A stretch of 11,869 nucleotides of DNA from Bacteroidales bacterium (lineage in GTDB: Bacteria > Bacteroidota > Bacteroidia > Bacteroidales > UBA932): assembly GCA_024401915.1 (NCBI GenBank), contig JAKSKA010000025.1, positions 1-11,869 on the forward strand. The letters run 5' to 3'. Below, piece after piece: positions 170 to 10,394 of this stretch (within the stretch, counting starts at the first letter, position 1; each line of letters starts with the position of its first letter). A program made the translations under genes and the position numbers. Under the pieces are notes generated by a model. The model was not told the origin of the DNA. It worked only from the letters and a program-made list of their open reading frames with translations, and made no database searches.

Positions 170-580
170 CTATTCCGGGGATGTCGCAAGGATGACTTTG
201 TAGTGGTTGCGCTTGGCGATGTTCATCACCTGCACGACCTCCTTGATGGGAACGGATTCGTCCGAGTAGATGGAGAAGGTCGGTTCCTCCTCGCTCTGGA
301 GCAGCCCGATGAGGCTGTCCTCTATCTCGTCGAACCCGACGGGAGCCTCGCTCCCGTTGATATGGTATGTGAAGCGCTCTTCTCCCCAGTCCTTGATCGA
401 GACGCTCGCCGTCGGCTTCGCGCCCACCTGTCCCGTGCTCTTCGGAAGGAGGAGCTTCAGGGCGTTGGGGTTGACCAGCGTCGAGGTCACGAGGAAGAAT
501 ATCAACAGCAGGAAGACGATGTCCGTCATACTGCTCATTGACATATTCGGGTCGGGCCTTGTTGTTCTTTTAAGTGACAT
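170..580 (-). CDS. exbD: ExbD/TolR family biopolymer transport protein
   Basis: A 136-aa protein, the normal length for ExbD/TolR. It has a short cytoplasmic N-terminus, one membrane helix at about residues 18-36 (MTDIVFLLLIFFLVTS) and a periplasmic domain to the C-terminus. Asp20, at the start of the helix, matches the proton-carrying aspartate of this family (Asp25 in E. coli ExbD). With ExbB it forms the proton channel that energises TonB. The ATG sits 3 nt after the exbB stop, so the two are almost certainly co-translated. The gene ends in TAG. ExbD and TolR cannot be told apart by sequence alone, but the following TonB-like gene favours ExbD. Confidence 0.93.
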   Translation of the reverse strand: MSLKRTTRPDPNMSMSSMTDIVFLLLIFFLVTSTLVNPNALKLLLPKSTGQVGAKPTASVSIKDWGEERFTYHINGSEAPVGFDEIEDSLIGLLQSEEEPTFSIYSDESVPIKEVVQVMNIAKRNHYKVILATSPE

Positions 581-2186: not shown

Positions 2187-3179
2187 ATGGAAAGTGTGAA
2201 CATCAAGGAACTCAACGAACGCATCCAGAAAGAAAGCGAATTCGTTGACATTCTTTCCCTTGAGATGGGGAAGGTCATCGTGGGCCAGAAACATCTCGTT
2301 GAAAATCTGATGATTGCATTGCTCGCGAACGGCCACGTCCTCCTCGAAGGTATGCCGGGTCTTGCAAAGACGCTCGCGATAAGCACCCTGTCAAAGGCCG
2401 TGAACGCCCGCTTCAGCAGGATACAGTTCACGCCGGACCTCCTCCCGGCCGACGTCACCGGCACCCTGGTCTATTCCCAGAAAAAAGAGGATTTCGAGGT
2501 GCACAAGGGCCCCGTGTTCGCCAATTTCGTCCTTGCCGACGAAATCAACCGTGCCCCGGCGAAGGTCCAGTCGGCTCTGCTCGAGGCTATGCAGGAGCGC
2601 CAGGTGACGCTCGGCGACAACACCTACGAGCTGCCGAAGCCCTTCCTCGTAATGGCGACCCAGAACCCTGTGGAGCAGGAAGGTACATATCCCCTCCCCG
2701 AGGCGCAGATGGACCGTTTCATGCTCAAGGTGGTGGTAGGCTATCCTTCGAAGGATGAGGAGCGCAACATCATCAGGATGAATAATTCCGGAGAGTTTCC
2801 CACACCCAATGCCGTGATTACTCCCGAGGAGATAATGAAGGCCAGGGAAGTGGTCCGCGAGGTCTATATGGACGAGAAGATAGAACGCTATATCGTCGAT
2901 ATCGTCTATGCGACCCGTACTCCCGGAGATTATGGCCTGGGTGATATCAAGAGCCTCATCTCCTATGGCGCGTCACCCCGTGCCAGCATAGCGCTCAGCG
3001 CCGCCGCGAAGGCCTACGCCTTCATCAAGCGCCGCGGGTACGTGATCCCCGAGGACGTCAGGGCCGTGTGCCCCGAAGTGCTCCGTCACCGTATCGGACT
3101 GAGCTATGAGGCAGAGGCGGAGAATGTCACCGTCGAGGAAATCATCGAAAAGGTCATCAACGCTGTAATAGTTCCGTAA
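2187..3179 (+). CDS. moxR: MoxR family AAA+ ATPase (Bat operon)
   Basis: A 330-aa cytoplasmic AAA+ ATPase of the MoxR family, full length. Walker A is GMPGLAKT (55-62), Walker B is VLADE (115-119), sensor 1 is at Asn160 in VMATQN, the likely arginine finger is Arg177 in PEAQMDRF, and sensor 2 is Arg265 in GASPRAS. All key ATPase residues are therefore present. MoxR ATPases are encoded beside VWA proteins and are thought to remodel or mature protein complexes with them. Here it opens the Bat operon, 6 nt ahead of the DUF58 gene. The exact client in Bacteroidales is not known. Confidence 0.96.
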   Translation: MESVNIKELNERIQKESEFVDILSLEMGKVIVGQKHLVENLMIALLANGHVLLEGMPGLAKTLAISTLSKAVNARFSRIQFTPDLLPADVTGTLVYSQKKEDFEVHKGPVFANFVLADEINRAPAKVQSALLEAMQERQVTLGDNTYELPKPFLVMATQNPVEQEGTYPLPEAQMDRFMLKVVVGYPSKDEERNIIRMNNSGEFPTPNAVITPEEIMKAREVVREVYMDEKIERYIVDIVYATRTPGDYGLGDIKSLISYGASPRASIALSAAAKAYAFIKRRGYVIPEDVRAVCPEVLRHRIGLSYEAEAENVTVEEIIEKVINAVIVP

Positions 3180-3185
3180 TTCCTG

Positions 3186-4070
3186 ATGGAAAATTCGGCC
3201 ACAGAACTGCTGAAGAAGGTCCGCAAGATAGAGATACGGACCAAGGCGCTCTCCCACCAGATCTTTGCGGGAGAGTATCATTCTGCATTCAAGGGCCGCG
3301 GAATGGCGTTCAGCGAAGTGCGCGAATACCAGTGGGGCGACGATGTGCGCTCGATGGACTGGAATGTCACGGCGCGTCTGCGCAGCCCCTATGTCAAGGT
3401 GTTCGAGGAAGAGCGCGAACTGACGGTGGTGCTGCTCGTGGACGTGAGCCGCAGCGGCCTTTTCGGCACATCCGTGCGTACGAAGCGGGACCTGGTGGCT
3501 GAGATCGCCGCCGTCCTGAGCTTCAGCGCAAGCATCAACAACGACAAGGTGGGCGCACTTTTCTTCAGCGACCGCGTCGAGAAGTTCATCCCCCCGAAGA
3601 AGGGCCGCAGCCATCTTCTCCACATCATACGCGAGATGCTCCAGCTCCAGCCCGAACACGACGGAACCGATATAGGCGAAGCTCTCCGTTTCCTCACCAA
3701 TGCACTGAAAAAGAGATGTAACGCCTTCCTGCTGAGCGATATGCTCGACGTCGATGCGGACGGCAACCCGCGCTACGAGGACGCGCTGAAGGTAGCGGCG
3801 GGACGTCACGAGCTCTCGGTTCTCAGGGTATATGACCCGAGGGAGGAGGAGATTCCCGCAGTCGGCCTTGTCCACGTCAAGGACAGCGAAAGCGGGGAGG
3901 GAGCGTGGATCAACACTGACAGCAAGCGTGTCAGGACCGCATACGGAGACTGGCACCGCAATGCGTCGGAAGCCTGTCTCAAGATGCTGCGCAGATACAA
4001 GGTCAATTCGGTCGATGTGCGCACTGACGAAGATTATGTCAAGGCCCTGATGAAACTTTTCCACAATTGA
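3186..4070 (+). CDS. DUF58 / VWA-like protein of the Bat operon
   Basis: A 294-aa protein without a signal peptide or obvious membrane segment. It carries the DUF58 signature as GRGMAFSEVREYQWGDDVRSMDW (about 37-59), followed by TARLRSPYVKVFEEERE. A VWA-type fold follows with a metal-binding-like DVSRS motif at 86-90 and a SDMLDVD segment near the expected last MIDAS loop. DUF58 proteins regularly sit directly after moxR and are presumed to be its cytoplasmic partner. Only 6 nt separate it from moxR and 1 nt from the next gene, so co-translation is likely. The biochemical role is unproven. Confidence 0.92.
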   Translation: MENSATELLKKVRKIEIRTKALSHQIFAGEYHSAFKGRGMAFSEVREYQWGDDVRSMDWNVTARLRSPYVKVFEEERELTVVLLVDVSRSGLFGTSVRTKRDLVAEIAAVLSFSASINNDKVGALFFSDRVEKFIPPKKGRSHLLHIIREMLQLQPEHDGTDIGEALRFLTNALKKRCNAFLLSDMLDVDADGNPRYEDALKVAAGRHELSVLRVYDPREEEIPAVGLVHVKDSESGEGAWINTDSKRVRTAYGDWHRNASEACLKMLRRYKVNSVDVRTDEDYVKALMKLFHN

Positions 4071-4071
4071 A

Positions 4072-5058
4072 ATGAGGATTCTTGTCATTATACTGGCTTT
4101 TGTTCTGAACGTCATACCGTCCGGACGCGCTTTTCTGGAGCCCCTCCAGAAGCGTGATTCCATCCTGGTCGGCGACCAGGTCCGGTATGGGATCAGACTT
4201 GACAGCCTCGGGAAGGGGACGGCGATAGCCCTGCCTGATTTCTCCGAGGTGTCCAATGATACGCTTACGCTCGTAAGCAACTGGCAGACAGATACGATAG
4301 GCCGTTATACAAAGAAGGATGCCGAGGCCGGGAAACCGCTCTCGATAAGGGCGTCCGTGGTTCTTGCTCCCTTTGAGGAAGGGACCTATGAACTTCCCGC
4401 AATTCCGGTCGCCATAATCCGTTCCGGCCACGCCGACACCCTCCTTTTCGAAGCTCGGACGATGGATGTCAAGACGCTTCAGCTGGACACGGCCGGTTTC
4501 GAAGTCCGCGACCTGAAGGGGCAGATGACCTATCCCGTCACTTTCCGGGAAATAGCGCCCTGGCTCGGCGGCGGCCTTGTGCTCGCCGGGCTCATTGTCC
4601 TGGCTGTCTGGCTCCTGCGCCGCTATCTTAAAAAGGAAAAAGGCGTCGAGGAGAAGAAGGATCCGGCATATATCGTGGCCCTCCGCAAGATCGAGGGCTT
4701 CAGGAGCGATAAATACTGGGCTCCGGAGAAACAGAAGCTTTTCTATTCCGGTATCACGGATGCTTTGAAGGAGTATATCGACGACCGTTTCGGCGTCGAT
4801 GCCCCCGAGATGACGACGGCGGAACTTTTCGCGGCACTGAAGGGCGAGAAGGATATAAGTCCGGAATTGTATATGGATATGAAATCCTTGTTCGAGAGGG
4901 CCGATTTCGTGAAATTCGCGAAATTCGCCGCATCCGACGAGGAGAACGCATCCGTGCTTCCGGTAGCCGTGCGTTTCGTCACTTCCACATATCAGATTGA
5001 AATGGAGCGCCAGGAGGCGCAGAACAGCACAGAGGGTGGGGAGGCCGTCGGAAACTGA
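4072..5058 (+). CDS. BatD-like single-pass membrane protein of the Bat operon
   Basis: A 328-aa protein that I can place by architecture but not name. Residues 1-20 form a signal peptide (RILVIILAFVLNVIPSGRA). A beta-rich periplasmic part follows to about 160, then a membrane helix at about 163-183 followed by basic RRYLKKEK, and a cytoplasmic domain from 184 to the end. That domain (LRKIEGF ... WAPEKQKLFYSGITDALKEYI ... LFERADFVKFAKF) resembles the cytoplasmic tail of BatD proteins. A gene of this kind lies between DUF58 and batA in many Bacteroidota. Its stop overlaps the batA ATG by one nt. It may be a scaffold linking the cytoplasmic ATPase to periplasmic partners; this is inference. Confidence 0.82.
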   Translation: MRILVIILAFVLNVIPSGRAFLEPLQKRDSILVGDQVRYGIRLDSLGKGTAIALPDFSEVSNDTLTLVSNWQTDTIGRYTKKDAEAGKPLSIRASVVLAPFEEGTYELPAIPVAIIRSGHADTLLFEARTMDVKTLQLDTAGFEVRDLKGQMTYPVTFREIAPWLGGGLVLAGLIVLAVWLLRRYLKKEKGVEEKKDPAYIVALRKIEGFRSDKYWAPEKQKLFYSGITDALKEYIDDRFGVDAPEMTTAELFAALKGEKDISPELYMDMKSLFERADFVKFAKFAASDEENASVLPVAVRFVTSTYQIEMERQEAQNSTEGGEAVGN

Positions 5059-6041
5059 TGTTCTTCGAATATCCGAAACTTCTCTGGCTCCTGCTGCTGC
5101 CGCTTCTGCTTGTCGCCCATTACCTTTGGGTGGAGCTGAGCGACCGCAGGCCCCATATACGGGTGTCTTCCGTGATTCCCTGGAAGCGTGGGGGGAGCAG
5201 CGTGCTCCGCTGGCTCCGTCATCTTCCATTCGTGTTCCGTATCCTCGCATTATCGTTGATAATCATTGCAATAGCGCGCCCCCGCTCGTCTTCCGAAGTC
5301 GAGAAAATCGATACCGAGGGCATCGATATCGTGATGGCTATGGATGTGTCCACGAGTATGCTTGCCCGGGATTTCAACCCCGACCGTATAAGCGCGGCGA
5401 AGGACATCGCGATCGAGTTCATCGCCCAGAGGCCTACGGACCGTATGGGAATAGTCGTTTTCGCGGGAGAAAGCTATACCCAGTGTCCGCTTACGACGGA
5501 CAGGGCCGTCCTTATCAATATGATGAAGGAAATCCAGACCAACCTCATCCAGGATGGAACGGCAATCGGAGACGGACTCGCCACGGCGGTCGCAAGGATG
5601 ATGGATTCGGATGCGAAGAGCCGGGTCGTGATTCTGCTTACCGATGGTGTGAACAACAGTGGCGCCGTCGCTCCGCTTACTGCGGCTGAGATTGCATCCA
5701 CTTATGGCATAAGGGTTTACACTATAGGCGTCGGTGCCAACGGGACAGCGCCATATCCGGTTATGACACCCTGGGGAGTCGAAGTCCAGAACATCCCGGT
5801 GGAGATTGACGAGGACCTCCTGAAGGGTATAGCCGAAAAGACGGGCGGCCGCTACTTCCGCGCTACGGACAATACCAAGCTGGCCGAAATCTATACTGAG
5901 ATCAACAAGATGGAGAAGGCCCGCACGACGATTGACAGTTTCCCTGTTTACAAGGAGCTGTTCGACCGCTATGCGCTTGCCGCTCTCGTGCTTCTGCTTC
6001 TTGAAATGCTTGTGAAACTATTGATAAGGAGACTGCCGTAA
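5058..6041 (+). CDS. batA: BatA, membrane-anchored VWA protein
   Basis: A 327-aa protein with two N-terminal hydrophobic segments (about 8-23 and 57-73), a VWA domain from about 88 to 280, and a C-terminal membrane helix at about 305-322. The MIDAS metal site is complete: DVSTS (96-100), Thr168 in DGTAIGDG, and Asp196 in LLTDGVNNSG. The VWA domain is therefore expected to bind Mg2+ or a similar ion and engage a partner. BatA was defined in the Bacteroides fragilis aerotolerance operon, and pairs with BatB. It overlaps the gene before and the gene after by one nt each (TGATG and TAATG), indicating coupled translation. Confidence 0.95.
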   Translation: MFFEYPKLLWLLLLPLLLVAHYLWVELSDRRPHIRVSSVIPWKRGGSSVLRWLRHLPFVFRILALSLIIIAIARPRSSSEVEKIDTEGIDIVMAMDVSTSMLARDFNPDRISAAKDIAIEFIAQRPTDRMGIVVFAGESYTQCPLTTDRAVLINMMKEIQTNLIQDGTAIGDGLATAVARMMDSDAKSRVVILLTDGVNNSGAVAPLTAAEIASTYGIRVYTIGVGANGTAPYPVMTPWGVEVQNIPVEIDEDLLKGIAEKTGGRYFRATDNTKLAEIYTEINKMEKARTTIDSFPVYKELFDRYALAALVLLLLEMLVKLLIRRLP

Positions 6042-7039
6042 TGCTGCTGTTCGGAAATGCGAAATATCTGCTCCTGCTTTTGGGAGTCCCCCTTATTCTG
6101 ATTGTGTATGCCGTGAAGAGGCGTCTGCAGTCCCGCCGTGTGGCTGCGCTGGGCGATCCGGGGCTCGTGCGTGAACTGATGCCTTCGGTATCGGGAGCCA
6201 AGGGCTGGCTGCGCAACGTGCTCTTCGCGCTTGCCTTCGGCCTCTTCGCCATTGGCCTGGCGCGTCCTCGCATCGGAGCGAAGCTTGCCACCAGGGAGAC
6301 CCACGGAGCCGAGATAATGATTTGTCTCGACGTCTCCAACTCTATGCTGGCCCAGGATTATTCACCCTGCCGTCTGGAACGCGCGAAACTGGCTATTTCG
6401 AGAATAGTGGACAAACTTGACGGTGACCGCATAGGCCTGATCGTCTTTGCCGGCAGTTCATTCGTGCAGCTTCCGATCACCACCGATTACGTGTCCGCGA
6501 AGATGTTCCTGAGCAGCATCAATACCGAGTCGGTGCCTGTCCAGGGCACGGCCATAGCGGATGCGTTGCTGACGGCTGCGCGCGGATTCAGCCTTCAGAG
6601 CGAGAAGAGCCGCGCGGTGATTGTCATAACCGATGGCGAGAACCACGAGGACGATCCCGTCGAGGCCGCATCCAAGTTGGCCGAATCCGGCATCAGGGTA
6701 TATACCATCGGAGTGGGCTCCACTCACGGACAACCCATCCCGAAAGACGGCGACCTGATGAAGGACAATGACGGCAATATTGTGGTTACGAAGTTGGATG
6801 AGACGATCCTTCAGCAGATTGCGAAAGTCGGAGGCGGGGCTTACGTCCACGCCGGCGATGGGGAGTTCGGGCTCAATCCCATAATAGAAGACCTGAAGAG
6901 GCTCGAGGACGAGAAATTCAATTCCGTCGTCTTCGAAGAGTTCGATGAACAATATATGTATTTCTTCGGCGCGGCTCTCGTGCTGTTCATCCTCGAGATG
7001 CTTATAGGTGAAAGGAAGATAAAAAAGAAGCTGTTCTGA
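6041..7039 (+). CDS. batB: BatB, membrane-anchored VWA protein
   Basis: A 332-aa paralogue of BatA with the same plan: hydrophobic segments at about 8-24 and 57-74, a VWA domain, and a C-terminal membrane helix (YFFGAALVLFILEMLIG) followed by basic RKIKKK. MIDAS residues are all present: DVSNS (97-101), Thr170 in VQGTAIADAL, and Asp198 in VITDGENHE. The tandem arrangement suggests that BatA and BatB arose by duplication and form a hetero-complex. It starts inside the batA stop codon (TAATG) and its own stop overlaps the batC start (TGATG). Confidence 0.95.
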   Translation: MLLFGNAKYLLLLLGVPLILIVYAVKRRLQSRRVAALGDPGLVRELMPSVSGAKGWLRNVLFALAFGLFAIGLARPRIGAKLATRETHGAEIMICLDVSNSMLAQDYSPCRLERAKLAISRIVDKLDGDRIGLIVFAGSSFVQLPITTDYVSAKMFLSSINTESVPVQGTAIADALLTAARGFSLQSEKSRAVIVITDGENHEDDPVEAASKLAESGIRVYTIGVGSTHGQPIPKDGDLMKDNDGNIVVTKLDETILQQIAKVGGGAYVHAGDGEFGLNPIIEDLKRLEDEKFNSVVFEEFDEQYMYFFGAALVLFILEMLIGERKIKKKLF

Positions 7040-7782
7040 TGAGAAGGTCCTTGTTATTCATATTGATGGTCCTGCTTTCCGTCCAGGCTTATGCCCAGGT
7101 GGACAGGAAGGAAGTGCGCGCCGGAAACCGTGATTTCAAGAAAGGCGATTACGGCGAGGCCGAGATAGACTACAGGAAGGCCGTCCTCAAGGACTCGCTT
7201 TCCGTTGCGGGCAATTACAACCTGGCTTCTGCCTTATATAAAAAGGAGGATTTTGACGGAGCCGGGAAGGCTCTCGATGCCGTCAAGGACCTGTGCGATA
7301 CTCCTGAATATCATTTCAACAGGGGGGACGTGGCTCTGAAGAAGAAGGATTGGAAGACGGCGGTGGACGAGTTCAGGAAGGCTCTGCTGCAGACTCCGGA
7401 TGATATGGATGCGAAGGAGAACTACGTTTATGCTAAGAAGATGCTGGAGAACCAGCAGCAACAGCAGCAACAGCAGCAGAACCAGCAGGATAACAATCAG
7501 GATCAGAACCAGGATCAGAACCAGGACCAGCAGCAACAGCAGCAACAGGATCAGGATCAGAACCAGGATCAGGACCAGCAGAATCAGGATCAGAACCAGC
7601 CCCGGGACAAGGGCGATCAGGATAATCAGGACAGCCAGCAACAACAGGATGGGAAGATTTCTCCGCAGCAGGCCCGCCAGATGCTTCGCGCGATTCAGGC
7701 CCGCGAGAAGGAGACTCAGGACAAGGTGAAAAAGGAAAAGGCCGCATTGCTGCAGTCCAGCCAAAAGGAAAAGAATTGGTGA
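7039..7782 (+). CDS. batC: BatC, periplasmic TPR protein with Gln/Asp/Asn-rich linker
   Basis: A 247-aa secreted protein. Residues 1-19 are a signal peptide with likely cleavage after VQAYA. TPR-type helices span about 22-136 (for example AGNRDFKKGDYGEAEIDYRKAV and GDVALKKKDWKTAVDEFRKAL). Residues 138-203 are almost only Gln, Asn and Asp. The last 40 residues (ISPQQARQMLRAIQAREKET ... KEKNW) match the conserved BatC tail. BatC is thought to act as an interaction scaffold with BatA/BatB and BatD in the periplasm. The gene overlaps batB and batD by one nt each. The linker is a likely site of length variation between strains. Confidence 0.92.
   Translation: MRRSLLFILMVLLSVQAYAQVDRKEVRAGNRDFKKGDYGEAEIDYRKAVLKDSLSVAGNYNLASALYKKEDFDGAGKALDAVKDLCDTPEYHFNRGDVALKKKDWKTAVDEFRKALLQTPDDMDAKENYVYAKKMLENQQQQQQQQQNQQDNNQDQNQDQNQDQQQQQQQDQDQNQDQDQQNQDQNQPRDKGDQDNQDSQQQQDGKISPQQARQMLRAIQAREKETQDKVKKEKAALLQSSQKEKNW
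7453..7647 (+). repeat. Degenerate CAG/CAGGAT/AACCAGGATCAG repeats inside batC
   Basis: A low-complexity stretch of CAG and CAA triplets mixed with short units such as AACCAGGATCAG and CAGGATCAGGAC encodes the Gln/Asn/Asp-rich linker of BatC. All units are multiples of three, so gain or loss of a unit keeps the frame. Synonymous CAA/CAG mixing suggests selection on the amino acids rather than a fresh nucleotide expansion. Confidence 0.85.
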
Positions 7783-8276
7783 TGAAGAAGTTGATATTGA
7801 CAATCATTTGCGCTCTCGCGGCACTTGCCGCTTCAGCTGCCGAAACGATAAAGGTCCAGTGTCCGAATCTCGTGGCGCTGGACGAACAGTTTAACGTCAC
7901 CTTCATAATTGAAGGGGAGTCCTCTGATTTCCAGTGGACGCCGGGGAATGATTTCCAACTTGTCTGGGGGCCCCAGAGAGGCAGTTCCTCGTCCATCAGC
8001 ATCATCAACGGAAAGCGCACCAGTTCTTCCCAGACGAGCTATACCTATGTGCTCAGCCCGAAATCTTCCGGACGTTTCCAGCTGCCGCAGGCGAGCGCCG
8101 TGTCGGGCAGGGACAGGATCGTGTCCCCTTCCGTGACCATCGAGGTCGTGTCCAACGGCGCTTCCCAGCAGCCCCAGCAGTCCCGGCAGACAAACTCCGG
8201 CTCCTATGATGAACCGGCGCCTGCTGCCGCTCCTGCGCCGCGTGATGGTAAGCGCGATAGTTTCATGCGCCTGTAG
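7782..8276 (+). CDS. batD: BatD, N-terminal part, ended early by an in-frame TAG
   Basis: This encodes 164 residues corresponding to the first domain of BatD. A signal peptide covers about 1-20 (LILTIICALAALAASAA). A beta-rich domain with the BatD-type block VWGPQRGSSSSISIINGK (61-78) and TSYTYVL follows, then a Pro/Ala/Gln-rich linker at about 127-157. The ATG at 7782 was chosen because it overlaps the batC stop by one nt (TGATG), as at the neighbouring junctions; a TTG two codons earlier is unlikely. The frame stops at TAG (8274-8276) just after DSFMRL, where BatD proteins continue into a second domain. Downstream sequence carries on in the same frame with clear BatD similarity, so this looks like the 5' part of a broken or read-through gene rather than a natural short protein. 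Confidence 0.85.
   Translation: MKKLILTIICALAALAASAAETIKVQCPNLVALDEQFNVTFIIEGESSDFQWTPGNDFQLVWGPQRGSSSSISIINGKRTSSSQTSYTYVLSPKSSGRFQLPQASAVSGRDRIVSPSVTIEVVSNGASQQPQQSRQTNSGSYDEPAPAAAPAPRDGKRDSFMRL
8274..8276 (+). other. In-frame amber codon interrupting batD-batE
   Basis: TAG replaces one sense codon between Leu164 of the upstream part and the Met encoded at 8277-8279. Nothing is missing or shifted: reading through gives a continuous frame of 870 codons from 7782 to 10391. The local protein reads SFMRL-stop-MSKKKVVIGE, and BatD proteins normally run through this point as one strand. Confidence 0.9.
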
Positions 8277-10394
8277 ATGAGCAAGAAAAAGGTCGTCATC
8301 GGAGAGGCCGTCACGGCAACCCTGAAACTGTACCAGCGCGCCAATATCGCCGGGTTTGAGGATGCCCACTTCCCCTCGTTCAACGGCTTCTGGAGCCAGG
8401 AACTGCAGGCCCCTACAAATATCGAGTTCCAGCGCGAAAACGTCGGGAACCTTATATACAATTCAGCCGTCCTGCGCAGCTGGAAGCTCATTCCGCAGCA
8501 GTCGGGGGAACTTGAGATAGAGCCCTCCGAACTGGTATGCCTGGTCAACGTGCGCACTCCGCGCGCCTCTACGGGCAGCATCTTCGACAGCTTCTTCCAG
8601 GATGATATCCAGACCGTACGCAGGCGCATCACCGCCCCGGCCCAGAAGGTCAGGGTGTCCGGCCTCCCTGCCGGTGCTCCGGATTCTTTCGGCGGCGGTG
8701 TGGGCCAGTTCAGCCTGAGTGCAGCGCTGACGCGTGATTCCCTGAAGACGCACGAGGCCGCATCGCTGAAGGTGACCGTCAGCGGAAAGGGAAACCTGAC
8801 CATGCTCGAAGCGCCGAAGATTTCTTTCCCTCCCGACTTCGAGGTCTATGACGTGAAGGTGTCCGATACGGCTTCCGGCCGTCAGTTCGAATATCCTTTC
8901 ATTCCCCGCAGCCACGGTGATTTCGTGATAGGGCCCGTCGAGTATTCGTACTATGACATTCAGGCTTCGAGGTATGTGACCCTCAATTCCGCAGCCCTTC
9001 CGCTGAAGGTGGCACGCGGGGCCGAGACTCAGGAAAACGCCTACGGGCAGCCGCTTGTGCCGTCCGTTTCCAGAAAGGACGTGCGCGATCTGGGCAGCGA
9101 CATACGTTATATCGTGTCTTCCCCTTCGTCGCTGTCTCGCTCCGGCCGTTTCTTCGTCGCTTCGCCCGCATTTATAGTGATTCTCGCCCTGATTCTCGTT
9201 GCAGCTGCCCTTTATCTGCTTCTTTCCCGCAGGGCCGCCGCCAGACGTGCCGACGTTGTGGGAAGCCGCAACCGAGCCGCTGCCAAGAAGGCCCGCAAGC
9301 GTCTCGCCAGGGCCGGAGGCTATCTGAAGGACAATCTTTATACGGCGTTCTATGAGGAGCTCCACAGGACCCTTCTCGGATTCGCTTCCGACAAGTTGGC
9401 TATGGACGCGGCGGCTATGTCGCGGGACAATATAAAAGCACGCCTGCTCGCTTCAGGAGCCTCGGAAAGCGACGCTGATGGCTTCTGCTCGCTGCTTGAA
9501 GCCTGCGAATACGCGCGCTATGCCCCCGATGCCGGCCACGAGGCGATGAACGCCCATTTCGAAAGTGCCGTCAGTGTCATTTCTTCAATCGATGAGAGTA
9601 TGAAACATTCACGCAAGGGAGGAGCTTCCGTTGCAGCAATGGTCGCCGGCCTGCTGTTCCTGCTTCCCGTTTCCTCTTCCGCTGCCGTTCCGGCCGAGGT
9701 TGATTCATTGTGGAACAAGGGGGTGGACGCTTATGCCGCCGGAATGTGGCAGGAGGCTGTAGAGGCCTGGACGGCAGTCAGGGATCAAGGCCTGGAATCA
9801 GCCGGGCTGTGTTATAATATAGGGAACGCTTTCTTCAAGAAAAATGAATACGGACGTGCGGTCCTCTGGTATGAACGCGCCCACAGGCTCGACCCCGCCG
9901 ACAAGGACATACGGTACAATCTCGATTATGCCGCTGCGATGACCCAGGACAGGATCGAACCGGTGCCCGAGTTCTTCCTCACCACATTCGCCCGCCGTTT
10001 CCGCTCCGTACTCGGGTCCGATGCCTGGGCGGTGCTCTTCCTTGTCTTTCTCGGAGCGTTCCTGACCGCGCTCGTGCTTTTCCTGCGAGGTCGCTCCACT
10101 TCGGTCAGAAGGACGGGTTTCCATGGAGGGATAGCTCTTGCGCTCCTTGCTGCCGTGTCGCTACATTCCTCCATAAAGCTAAAGAACGAATATACGGACA
10201 AGACGTACGCAATCGTCGTTTCACCCGTGATCCAGGTGAGGAGTGCGCCCGGAGATGGTGCTGCGACCGAACTGTTTGTGCTCCACGAAGGTACAAAGGT
10301 GAAGATCCTGGACAGCGTCGGTGGATGGGACAACGTGGAGATAGCTGATGGACGGAAAGGCTGGCTCAAGGGCGCGGATATTGAAATCATATAA
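8277..10394 (+). CDS. batD: BatD C-terminal part fused to BatE (TPR and SH3-like domains)
   Basis: Residues here are counted from 8277. About 1-290 are periplasmic beta-rich BatD domains, including VVIGEAVTATLKLYQ and APTNIEFQREN. A membrane helix lies at about 296-316, and 317-448 is a basic, cytoplasmic BatD tail. At 442 a BatE-like start appears in the same frame: MKHSRKGG followed by a signal-like hydrophobic stretch (449-470). Next come TPR repeats (475-550), two membrane helices (582-602 and 614-633) and a C-terminal bacterial SH3-like domain (643-705). The positive-inside rule is satisfied throughout for a single fused chain. If translation begins at 8277 the product lacks an export signal, so this part should need readthrough of the TAG to work. 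It may be annotated as BatD family protein. Confidence 0.85.
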   Translation: MSKKKVVIGEAVTATLKLYQRANIAGFEDAHFPSFNGFWSQELQAPTNIEFQRENVGNLIYNSAVLRSWKLIPQQSGELEIEPSELVCLVNVRTPRASTGSIFDSFFQDDIQTVRRRITAPAQKVRVSGLPAGAPDSFGGGVGQFSLSAALTRDSLKTHEAASLKVTVSGKGNLTMLEAPKISFPPDFEVYDVKVSDTASGRQFEYPFIPRSHGDFVIGPVEYSYYDIQASRYVTLNSAALPLKVARGAETQENAYGQPLVPSVSRKDVRDLGSDIRYIVSSPSSLSRSGRFFVASPAFIVILALILVAAALYLLLSRRAAARRADVVGSRNRAAAKKARKRLARAGGYLKDNLYTAFYEELHRTLLGFASDKLAMDAAAMSRDNIKARLLASGASESDADGFCSLLEACEYARYAPDAGHEAMNAHFESAVSVISSIDESMKHSRKGGASVAAMVAGLLFLLPVSSSAAVPAEVDSLWNKGVDAYAAGMWQEAVEAWTAVRDQGLESAGLCYNIGNAFFKKNEYGRAVLWYERAHRLDPADKDIRYNLDYAAAMTQDRIEPVPEFFLTTFARRFRSVLGSDAWAVLFLVFLGAFLTALVLFLRGRSTSVRRTGFHGGIALALLAAVSLHSSIKLKNEYTDKTYAIVVSPVIQVRSAPGDGAATELFVLHEGTKVKILDSVGGWDNVEIADGRKGWLKGADIEII

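What the first reader, a model, noticed from the sequence alone, without database searches (positions are those of the whole stretch)
8274..8276. Single in-frame TAG splits an otherwise intact batD-batE gene
The 2.6-kb frame from 7782 to 10394 has one internal stop, TAG, directly followed by ATG. Both sides show strong BatD features, and the break falls inside a conserved strand at the start of the second BatD domain. The downstream piece would lack a signal peptide, so independent expression from 8277 could not place its large beta-rich part in the periplasm. Candidates are a recent nonsense mutation (an aerotolerance-type gene lost), an assembly or sequencing error, or readthrough. The rest of the long frame has no other stop or frameshift, so the event is recent or the codon is tolerated.
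Basis: partly seen in the sequence, partly recalled or inferred. Interest (0 to 1): 0.7.

Follow-up and report, generated by a model that had tools for sequence, protein, structure and literature searches.

The report
Probable sequence-error patch in batD-batE
A stop codon that seems to cut a gut-type bacterium's membrane-complex gene in two sits inside a tiny patch packed with odd changes that an almost identical gene elsewhere lacks, so it is most likely a local sequence error, or failing that one broken copy, and not a new genetic trick.

Summary
Frame 7782-10394 of a Bacteroidales Bat operon has one internal stop, TAG at 8274-8276, followed by ATG. "Single TAG in an otherwise intact gene" is incomplete: an uninterrupted 870-aa relative, P0001, is 98% identical over the downstream piece, and 7 of the 16 differences between it and the window, stop included, lie in residues 157-173, nt 8250-8300. 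No shuffle clustered so (0 of 200,000 plain, 0 of 20,000 rate-weighted); 60 overlapping pairs of other relatives show 0 or 1 difference there. The window's residue is absent from 119 relatives at 7 of 7 positions, P0001's at 2; against 80 loci, 5 and 1. All 80 loci are open across the site, as are the rows printed for 398 family genomes. TAG ends two neighbouring genes. Best reading: a ~50-nt patch of wrong bases in a metagenome-type contig (about 0.62); next, a real clustered or nonsense lesion (about 0.33). Recoding, separate genes and programmed readthrough are disfavoured. No reads or whole genome were available, so error and lesion are not finally separated.

The parts
7782..8276 (+). upstream piece of batD: signal-peptide-like N-terminus, first BatD domain, Gln/Pro/Ala-rich linker, ends in TAG
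   Evidence: PF13584 E 8.8e-19; hydropathy; model of P0001: helix 2-16, strands 23-123, low-confidence linker 127-156
8250..8300 (+). patch (codons 157-173) holding 7 of the 16 protein-level differences from the intact relative P0001
8274..8276 (+). in-frame TAG, codon 165, within predicted strand 160-166
8277..10394 (+). downstream piece: rest of BatD (second beta domain, second PF13584 match), membrane helix, BatE-like TPR and SH3 part
   Evidence: PF13584, TPR and SH3_3 matches; 705-aa ORF; model
7039..7782 (+). TPR protein with Gln/Asn/Asp-rich tail (BatC-like, label recalled), overlaps the batD start by one base
6041..7039 (+). VWA protein (BatB-like, label recalled); control gene with no difference patch
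5058..6041 (+). VWA protein with BatA N-terminal domain (BatA-like)
4072..5058 (+). operon protein without a Pfam match
3186..4070 (+). DUF58 protein
2187..3179 (+). MoxR-type AAA ATPase
   Evidence: AAA_3, bpMoxR
170..580 (-). ExbD/TolR gene that ends in TAG: TAG acts as a stop in this genome
584..1495 (-). MotA/TolQ/ExbB gene that ends in TAG (listed start is the mechanical one; its C-terminal end is less well conserved than ExbD's)

Best explanation
The window is an ordinary Bacteroidales Bat operon, most likely from a metagenomic contig (inferred: no genome is held for it), and batD-batE is one gene of 870 codons. The TAG is not an isolated event but one of at least seven wrong bases in a roughly 50-base patch of the contig's consensus. 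The likely source is a spot covered by one poor read, or a badly closed gap. Shown: the patch exists, is confined, is absent from the nearest copy, and there the window rather than that copy mostly leaves the family's range. Inferred: that it is technical, and that the cell makes a normal BatD-BatE. If the cell did carry this DNA, a short secreted first domain would be made, and reinitiation at the adjacent ATG could give only an unsecreted rest of BatD.
For: 7 of 16 protein differences from P0001 fall in 17 of 870 residues; 0 of 200,000 shuffles and 0 of 20,000 rate-weighted shuffles reach that anywhere in the protein (the width of 17 was chosen after seeing the data). In 60 pairs of other relatives at least 95% identical (overlapping, not independent) the same stretch has 0 differences (51 pairs) or 1 (9 pairs), 9 of 705 in all, so it is not a natural hot spot. 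Window residues absent from 119 relatives: 7 of 7 patch positions, P0001's 2 of 7; against 80 loci 5 and 1. Example: residue 160 is Ser in the window, while 119 of 119 relatives and 80 of 80 loci have Met, Ile, Leu or Val. The nine differences outside the patch go both ways. The neighbouring VWA gene differs from its three nearest copies at 3, 5 and 6 of 332 residues with no such patch. No other stop or frameshift in the frame. Most of the patch's minimal changes are transversions (my reading by eye; weak), as random miscalls would give.
Against: No reads or coverage were available; the rest of the contig looks clean, so a single bad spot has to be assumed. Only one intact close copy was in hand, as protein only (its cluster stands for 5 sequences, of which one was seen), so silent changes are unseen. 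At residue 157 the loci go the other way (window's Lys in 1 of 80, P0001's Gln in none) and at 173 the window's Ile is in 4 of 80. Clusters of differences also occur elsewhere in other pairs (up to 8 in 17 residues, P0063/P0083). An earlier scan of 11 genes did not single out this patch.
Confidence: 0.62

Rival explanations
1. A real loss-of-function allele: one clustered mutation event (error-prone repair, a template switch or short import with an unseen donor), or a nonsense mutation plus local changes, broke batD-batE in this strain. Its product would be a secreted first BatD domain, and perhaps a cytoplasmic remainder or BatE part made by reinitiation.
For: The frame is otherwise clean, which fits a recent event. 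ATG follows the stop directly, so reinitiation is possible (inference). Clustered multi-base mutations occur in nature (recalled).
Against: Relaxed selection would scatter changes over 870 codons, not 17 residues. No donor found in what was searched: no direct or inverted repeat of 14 or more in 7800-8800; the patch matches reverse-strand pieces of the window within the range of random pieces; a short-word search gave 10-base matches in the window and, in the 80 loci, two matches at the homologous place. The rest of the genome was not available. An imported tract from a relative should carry family-typical residues and no stop; it does not.
Confidence: 0.33
2. TAG is read as an amino acid here (code change, suppressor tRNA or programmed readthrough).
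For: The frame stays open for 705 codons after the TAG.
Against: TAG ends the ExbD and ExbB genes of the same window. Among 58 relatives whose ExbD match reaches that end the codon there is TGA in 25, TAA in 19, TAG in 14; for ExbB 12 of 16 have a stop there, 3 of them TAG, and 4 have none. 0 of 80 loci have a stop at the site. The missense changes around it stay unexplained. No tRNA gene lies in the window; the rest of the genome was not available.
Confidence: 0.02
3. Two genes by design: the BatD first domain and the rest are separately translated, with the TAG-ATG pair as a coupled boundary.
For: Adjacent TAG-ATG; overlapping starts are common in this operon. Some upstream-only proteins exist in the database: of the 19 of 150-175 aa printed, P0127 ends about five residues past the matching point and P0158 about ten; whether these are contig-end fragments was not checked.
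Against: 80 of 80 loci are one frame across the site, and every printed row has an open frame of 783-1084 aa around the roughly 705-residue match; the boundary lies inside a predicted strand; the downstream piece lacks a signal peptide; none of the 19 proteins printed ends at the matching point itself.
Confidence: 0.01
4. A targeted-diversification patch (diversity-generating retroelement or similar) in batD.
For: Dense substitutions without indels in a short tract.
Against: No near-repeat template of the patch in the window; no reverse transcriptase family among the 12 window proteins or pieces scanned against Pfam; the patch lies mid-gene, not at a C-terminal variable repeat (recalled hallmark); other close pairs hardly vary here.
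Confidence: 0.01

Closest known systems
BatD-BatE fusion proteins of uncultured Bacteroidales (P0001 and the other 119 proteins listed, 856-884 aa), Pfam PF13584
   Same: Same length (870 codons) and domain order; 98% identity of the downstream piece to P0001, next best about 61%
   Different: Window has TAG at codon 165 and six further differences from P0001 within residues 157-173
Bat (Bacteroides aerotolerance) proteins as described for Leptospira biflexa and Bacteroides fragilis (PMC3557215, passages read)
   Same: VWA and TPR motifs plus a BatD with an export signal, suggested to form a membrane-associated or periplasmic complex; fusions of bat genes are described
   Different: Role unproven: the paper could not show a protective role in oxidative stress for L. 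biflexa, so calling this an aerotolerance gene lost overstates what is known
Sequencing and assembly substitution errors (PMC4787001, passages read)
   Same: The paper calls substitutions the main Illumina error type and indels far rarer, like this patch
   Different: That paper's error motifs (3-mers ending in GG before the error) were not tested here; no reads to compare, and the platform behind this contig is unknown

Membership tests
BatD (PF13584) / Bat operon | BatD domains above Pfam's cut-off | tested here: met
   68.4 and 55 bits against cut-off 24.1 in the two pieces
BatD (PF13584) / Bat operon | MoxR, DUF58, VWA, VWA, TPR genes directly upstream | tested here: met
   (one protein without a Pfam match lies between DUF58 and the first VWA gene)
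BatD (PF13584) / Bat operon | one uninterrupted reading frame | tested here: not met
   TAG at codon 165 in the window as given; the frame is open in 80 of 80 loci
Stop-codon reassignment (TAG) | TAG not used as a true stop in the genome | tested here: not met
   ExbD and ExbB genes of the window end in TAG
Stop-codon reassignment (TAG) | tRNA with CUA anticodon | not testable with these tools
   no tRNA in window; no genome held
Programmed readthrough | stop conserved at the position in relatives | tested here: not met
   0 of 80 loci; printed rows have open frames of 783-1084 aa, longer than the 705-residue match
Sequence error patch | changes confined to a short tract, absent from an otherwise near-identical copy, outside the family's range | tested here: met
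   range left at 7 of 7 positions against 119 relatives, 5 of 7 against 80 loci
Sequence error patch | low or single read support at the tract | not testable with these tools
   no reads
Diversity-generating retroelement target | template repeat and reverse transcriptase nearby | tested here: not met
   no repeat; no reverse transcriptase family among 12 scanned proteins or pieces; only the 11.9-kb window was searched

The most novel reading that the evidence does not exclude
The patch is real DNA: a single event rewrote about 50 bases of batD in one strain, seven or more substitutions without an indel and with no donor found, making a natural null or truncated BatD that still secretes its first domain. 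That would be a clean example of a dense, donor-less mutation cluster in a conserved envelope-complex gene.
Probability: 0.08. Interest if true: 0.4.

Novelty: not a real feature. Interest (0 to 1): 0.1.

Why it matters
It mainly matters as a caution: a lone in-frame stop in a metagenomic gene should be checked against its nearest copy for a surrounding patch of off-family changes before it is called a pseudogene, recoding or readthrough. If the patch were real, it would be a dense mutation cluster in a Bat operon, a system whose function is still unsettled (PMC3557215, passages read).

Tried and rejected
Recoding or readthrough: disfavoured, TAG ends two neighbour genes and no fetched relative has a stop here. 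Two-gene design: disfavoured. Template switch or local repeat: none found in the window. Mobile DNA: no near match of the window in phages or plasmids; 7039-10394 has no distant match in plasmids; no viral contig matched a 26-base stretch beside the stop or the protein patterns.

A first scan for residues unseen in relatives, across 11 genes, did not single out the patch: its densest 17-residue stretches were ExbB (5), BatDE (4, the one reported starts at 805) and DUF58 (4). All 80 of its segments do cover the site, so the difference lies in the local alignments. The full-length alignments give 5 unseen residues in 157-173 against 80 loci and 7 against 119 proteins; the densest stretches start at 150-154 (7 and 9). 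P0001 has 1 and 2 there, and its own densest stretches lie in the linker near 142 (6 and 7).

Base-change types (mostly transversions) were read by eye from protein against codon and are weak evidence, since only amino-acid-changing differences are visible.

Search for a genome of the same species: 398 genomes of the family of G001 (384 with a match; G001 itself holds L001, so this overlaps the 80 loci) gave nothing above 61% identity among the printed rows, so the DNA of the intact copy was never seen. One search scored 7,999 candidates and listed 120 of 5,635 hits; one search kept 80 of 481 loci. My statements on relatives rest on those.

Literature searches led to two papers, of which I saw listings and passages only; the listing showed nothing that I used.

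Full report
Observation. The frame 7782-10394 has 871 codons with stops only at codon 165 (TAG, 8274-8276) and at its end, and ATG follows the TAG. The other five frames over this stretch hold 10 to 38 stops, and both pieces have BatD domains well above Pfam's cut-off, so this is a broken gene and not a chance open frame. The genes upstream are MoxR, DUF58, an unassigned protein, two VWA proteins and a TPR protein: a Bat operon. The relatives found in genome contigs are Bacteroidales or Bacteroidia assemblies, many named after rumen or faeces samples.

Nearest copy. A protein search with the downstream piece alone found P0001, 870 aa, 98% identical over the whole query, on a 52-kb contig; the next best hits are at about 61%. 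P0001 has exactly the length of the window's frame with the stop counted as one residue. An intact copy thus exists in what is probably the same species (inference from identity).

The patch. The window and P0001 differ at 16 of 870 positions, and seven of these, the stop included, lie in residues 157-173, nt 8250-8300. Random placement of 16 differences never put seven in any 17 residues (0 of 200,000), nor did placement weighted by each column's variability among 119 relatives (0 of 20,000); the width of 17 was chosen after seeing the data. As a second control I took all pairs among the 120 listed relatives that are at least 95% identical with at least five differences: 60 overlapping pairs, of which 51 have no difference in this stretch and 9 have one, 9 of 705 differences in all. 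Clusters do occur elsewhere in such pairs (8 in 17 residues for P0063/P0083, and a C-terminal cluster of five in pairs with P0033 and P0049), so clustering alone is not proof.

Direction. None of the 119 relatives has the window's residue at any of the seven positions, whereas P0001's residue is shared by 34 (residue 160), 2 (165), 61 (166), 15 (169) and 113 (173) of 119; at 157 and 158 both are unseen. In 80 genome loci the window's residue is unseen at 158, 160, 165, 166 and 169, present in 1 at 157 and in 4 at 173; P0001's is unseen at 157 only. At the nine other differences neither side is consistently the odd one. So the patch does not look like ordinary strain variation, nor like a tract imported from a relative; residue 157 alone points weakly the other way.

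Conserved context. All 80 loci have an open frame across the site. In a search of 398 family genomes 384 have a match; every printed row shows an open frame of 783-1084 aa around the roughly 705-residue match, hence reaching past the site (the list was cut before its end). The downstream piece has no N-terminal hydrophobic stretch, but later ones near residues 454-485, 617-636 and 743-770.

Is TAG a stop here? Yes. The ExbD and ExbB genes on the other strand of this window end in TAG. Of 58 relatives whose ExbD match reaches that end all have a stop there, 14 of them TAG; for ExbB 12 of 16 do, 3 of them TAG. Readthrough or recoding would also leave the surrounding missense changes unexplained.

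Error or lesion. Relaxed selection after a nonsense mutation would scatter changes over the gene; they are confined. A neighbour gene in the same contig differs from its three nearest copies at 3, 5 and 6 of 332 residues with no patch, so the contig is not poor throughout. No donor for a template switch or conversion was found in the window or at other places of the 80 loci. The simplest account is a short stretch of bad consensus. The paper read in passages (PMC4787001) calls substitutions the main Illumina error type, which fits a patch without indels; its error motifs were not tested here and the platform of this contig is unknown. A real single-event lesion stays possible, since no reads, no coverage and no DNA of the intact copy were available.

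Meaning. If real, BatD-BatE would be lost or truncated in that strain. The role of Bat proteins is itself unsettled: the Leptospira study could not show a protective role against oxidative stress (PMC3557215, passages read), so 'aerotolerance lost' would not follow. Verdict: the stop is in the sequence as given, but as biology it is most likely an artefact; low interest.

Noticed in passing
7039-7782: The TPR (BatC-like) protein carries a long Gln/Asn/Asp-rich low-complexity stretch before its C-terminus; its stop overlaps the batD start.
   Followed up: no
4072-5058: The 328-aa operon protein between DUF58 and the first VWA gene has no Pfam match, yet 69 of the 80 loci hold a relative of it.
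   Followed up: no
codon 545 of the batD-batE frame, 9414-9416: A lone difference from P0001 at a column that is Asp or Glu in all 119 other relatives; possibly a further base error or a real variant.
   Followed up: partly
P0033 and P0049 (database proteins), residues 863-869 in window numbering: Two database proteins share a C-terminal cluster of five differences from their close kin P0028; P0052 gives the same cluster count, its positions were not printed.
   Followed up: no
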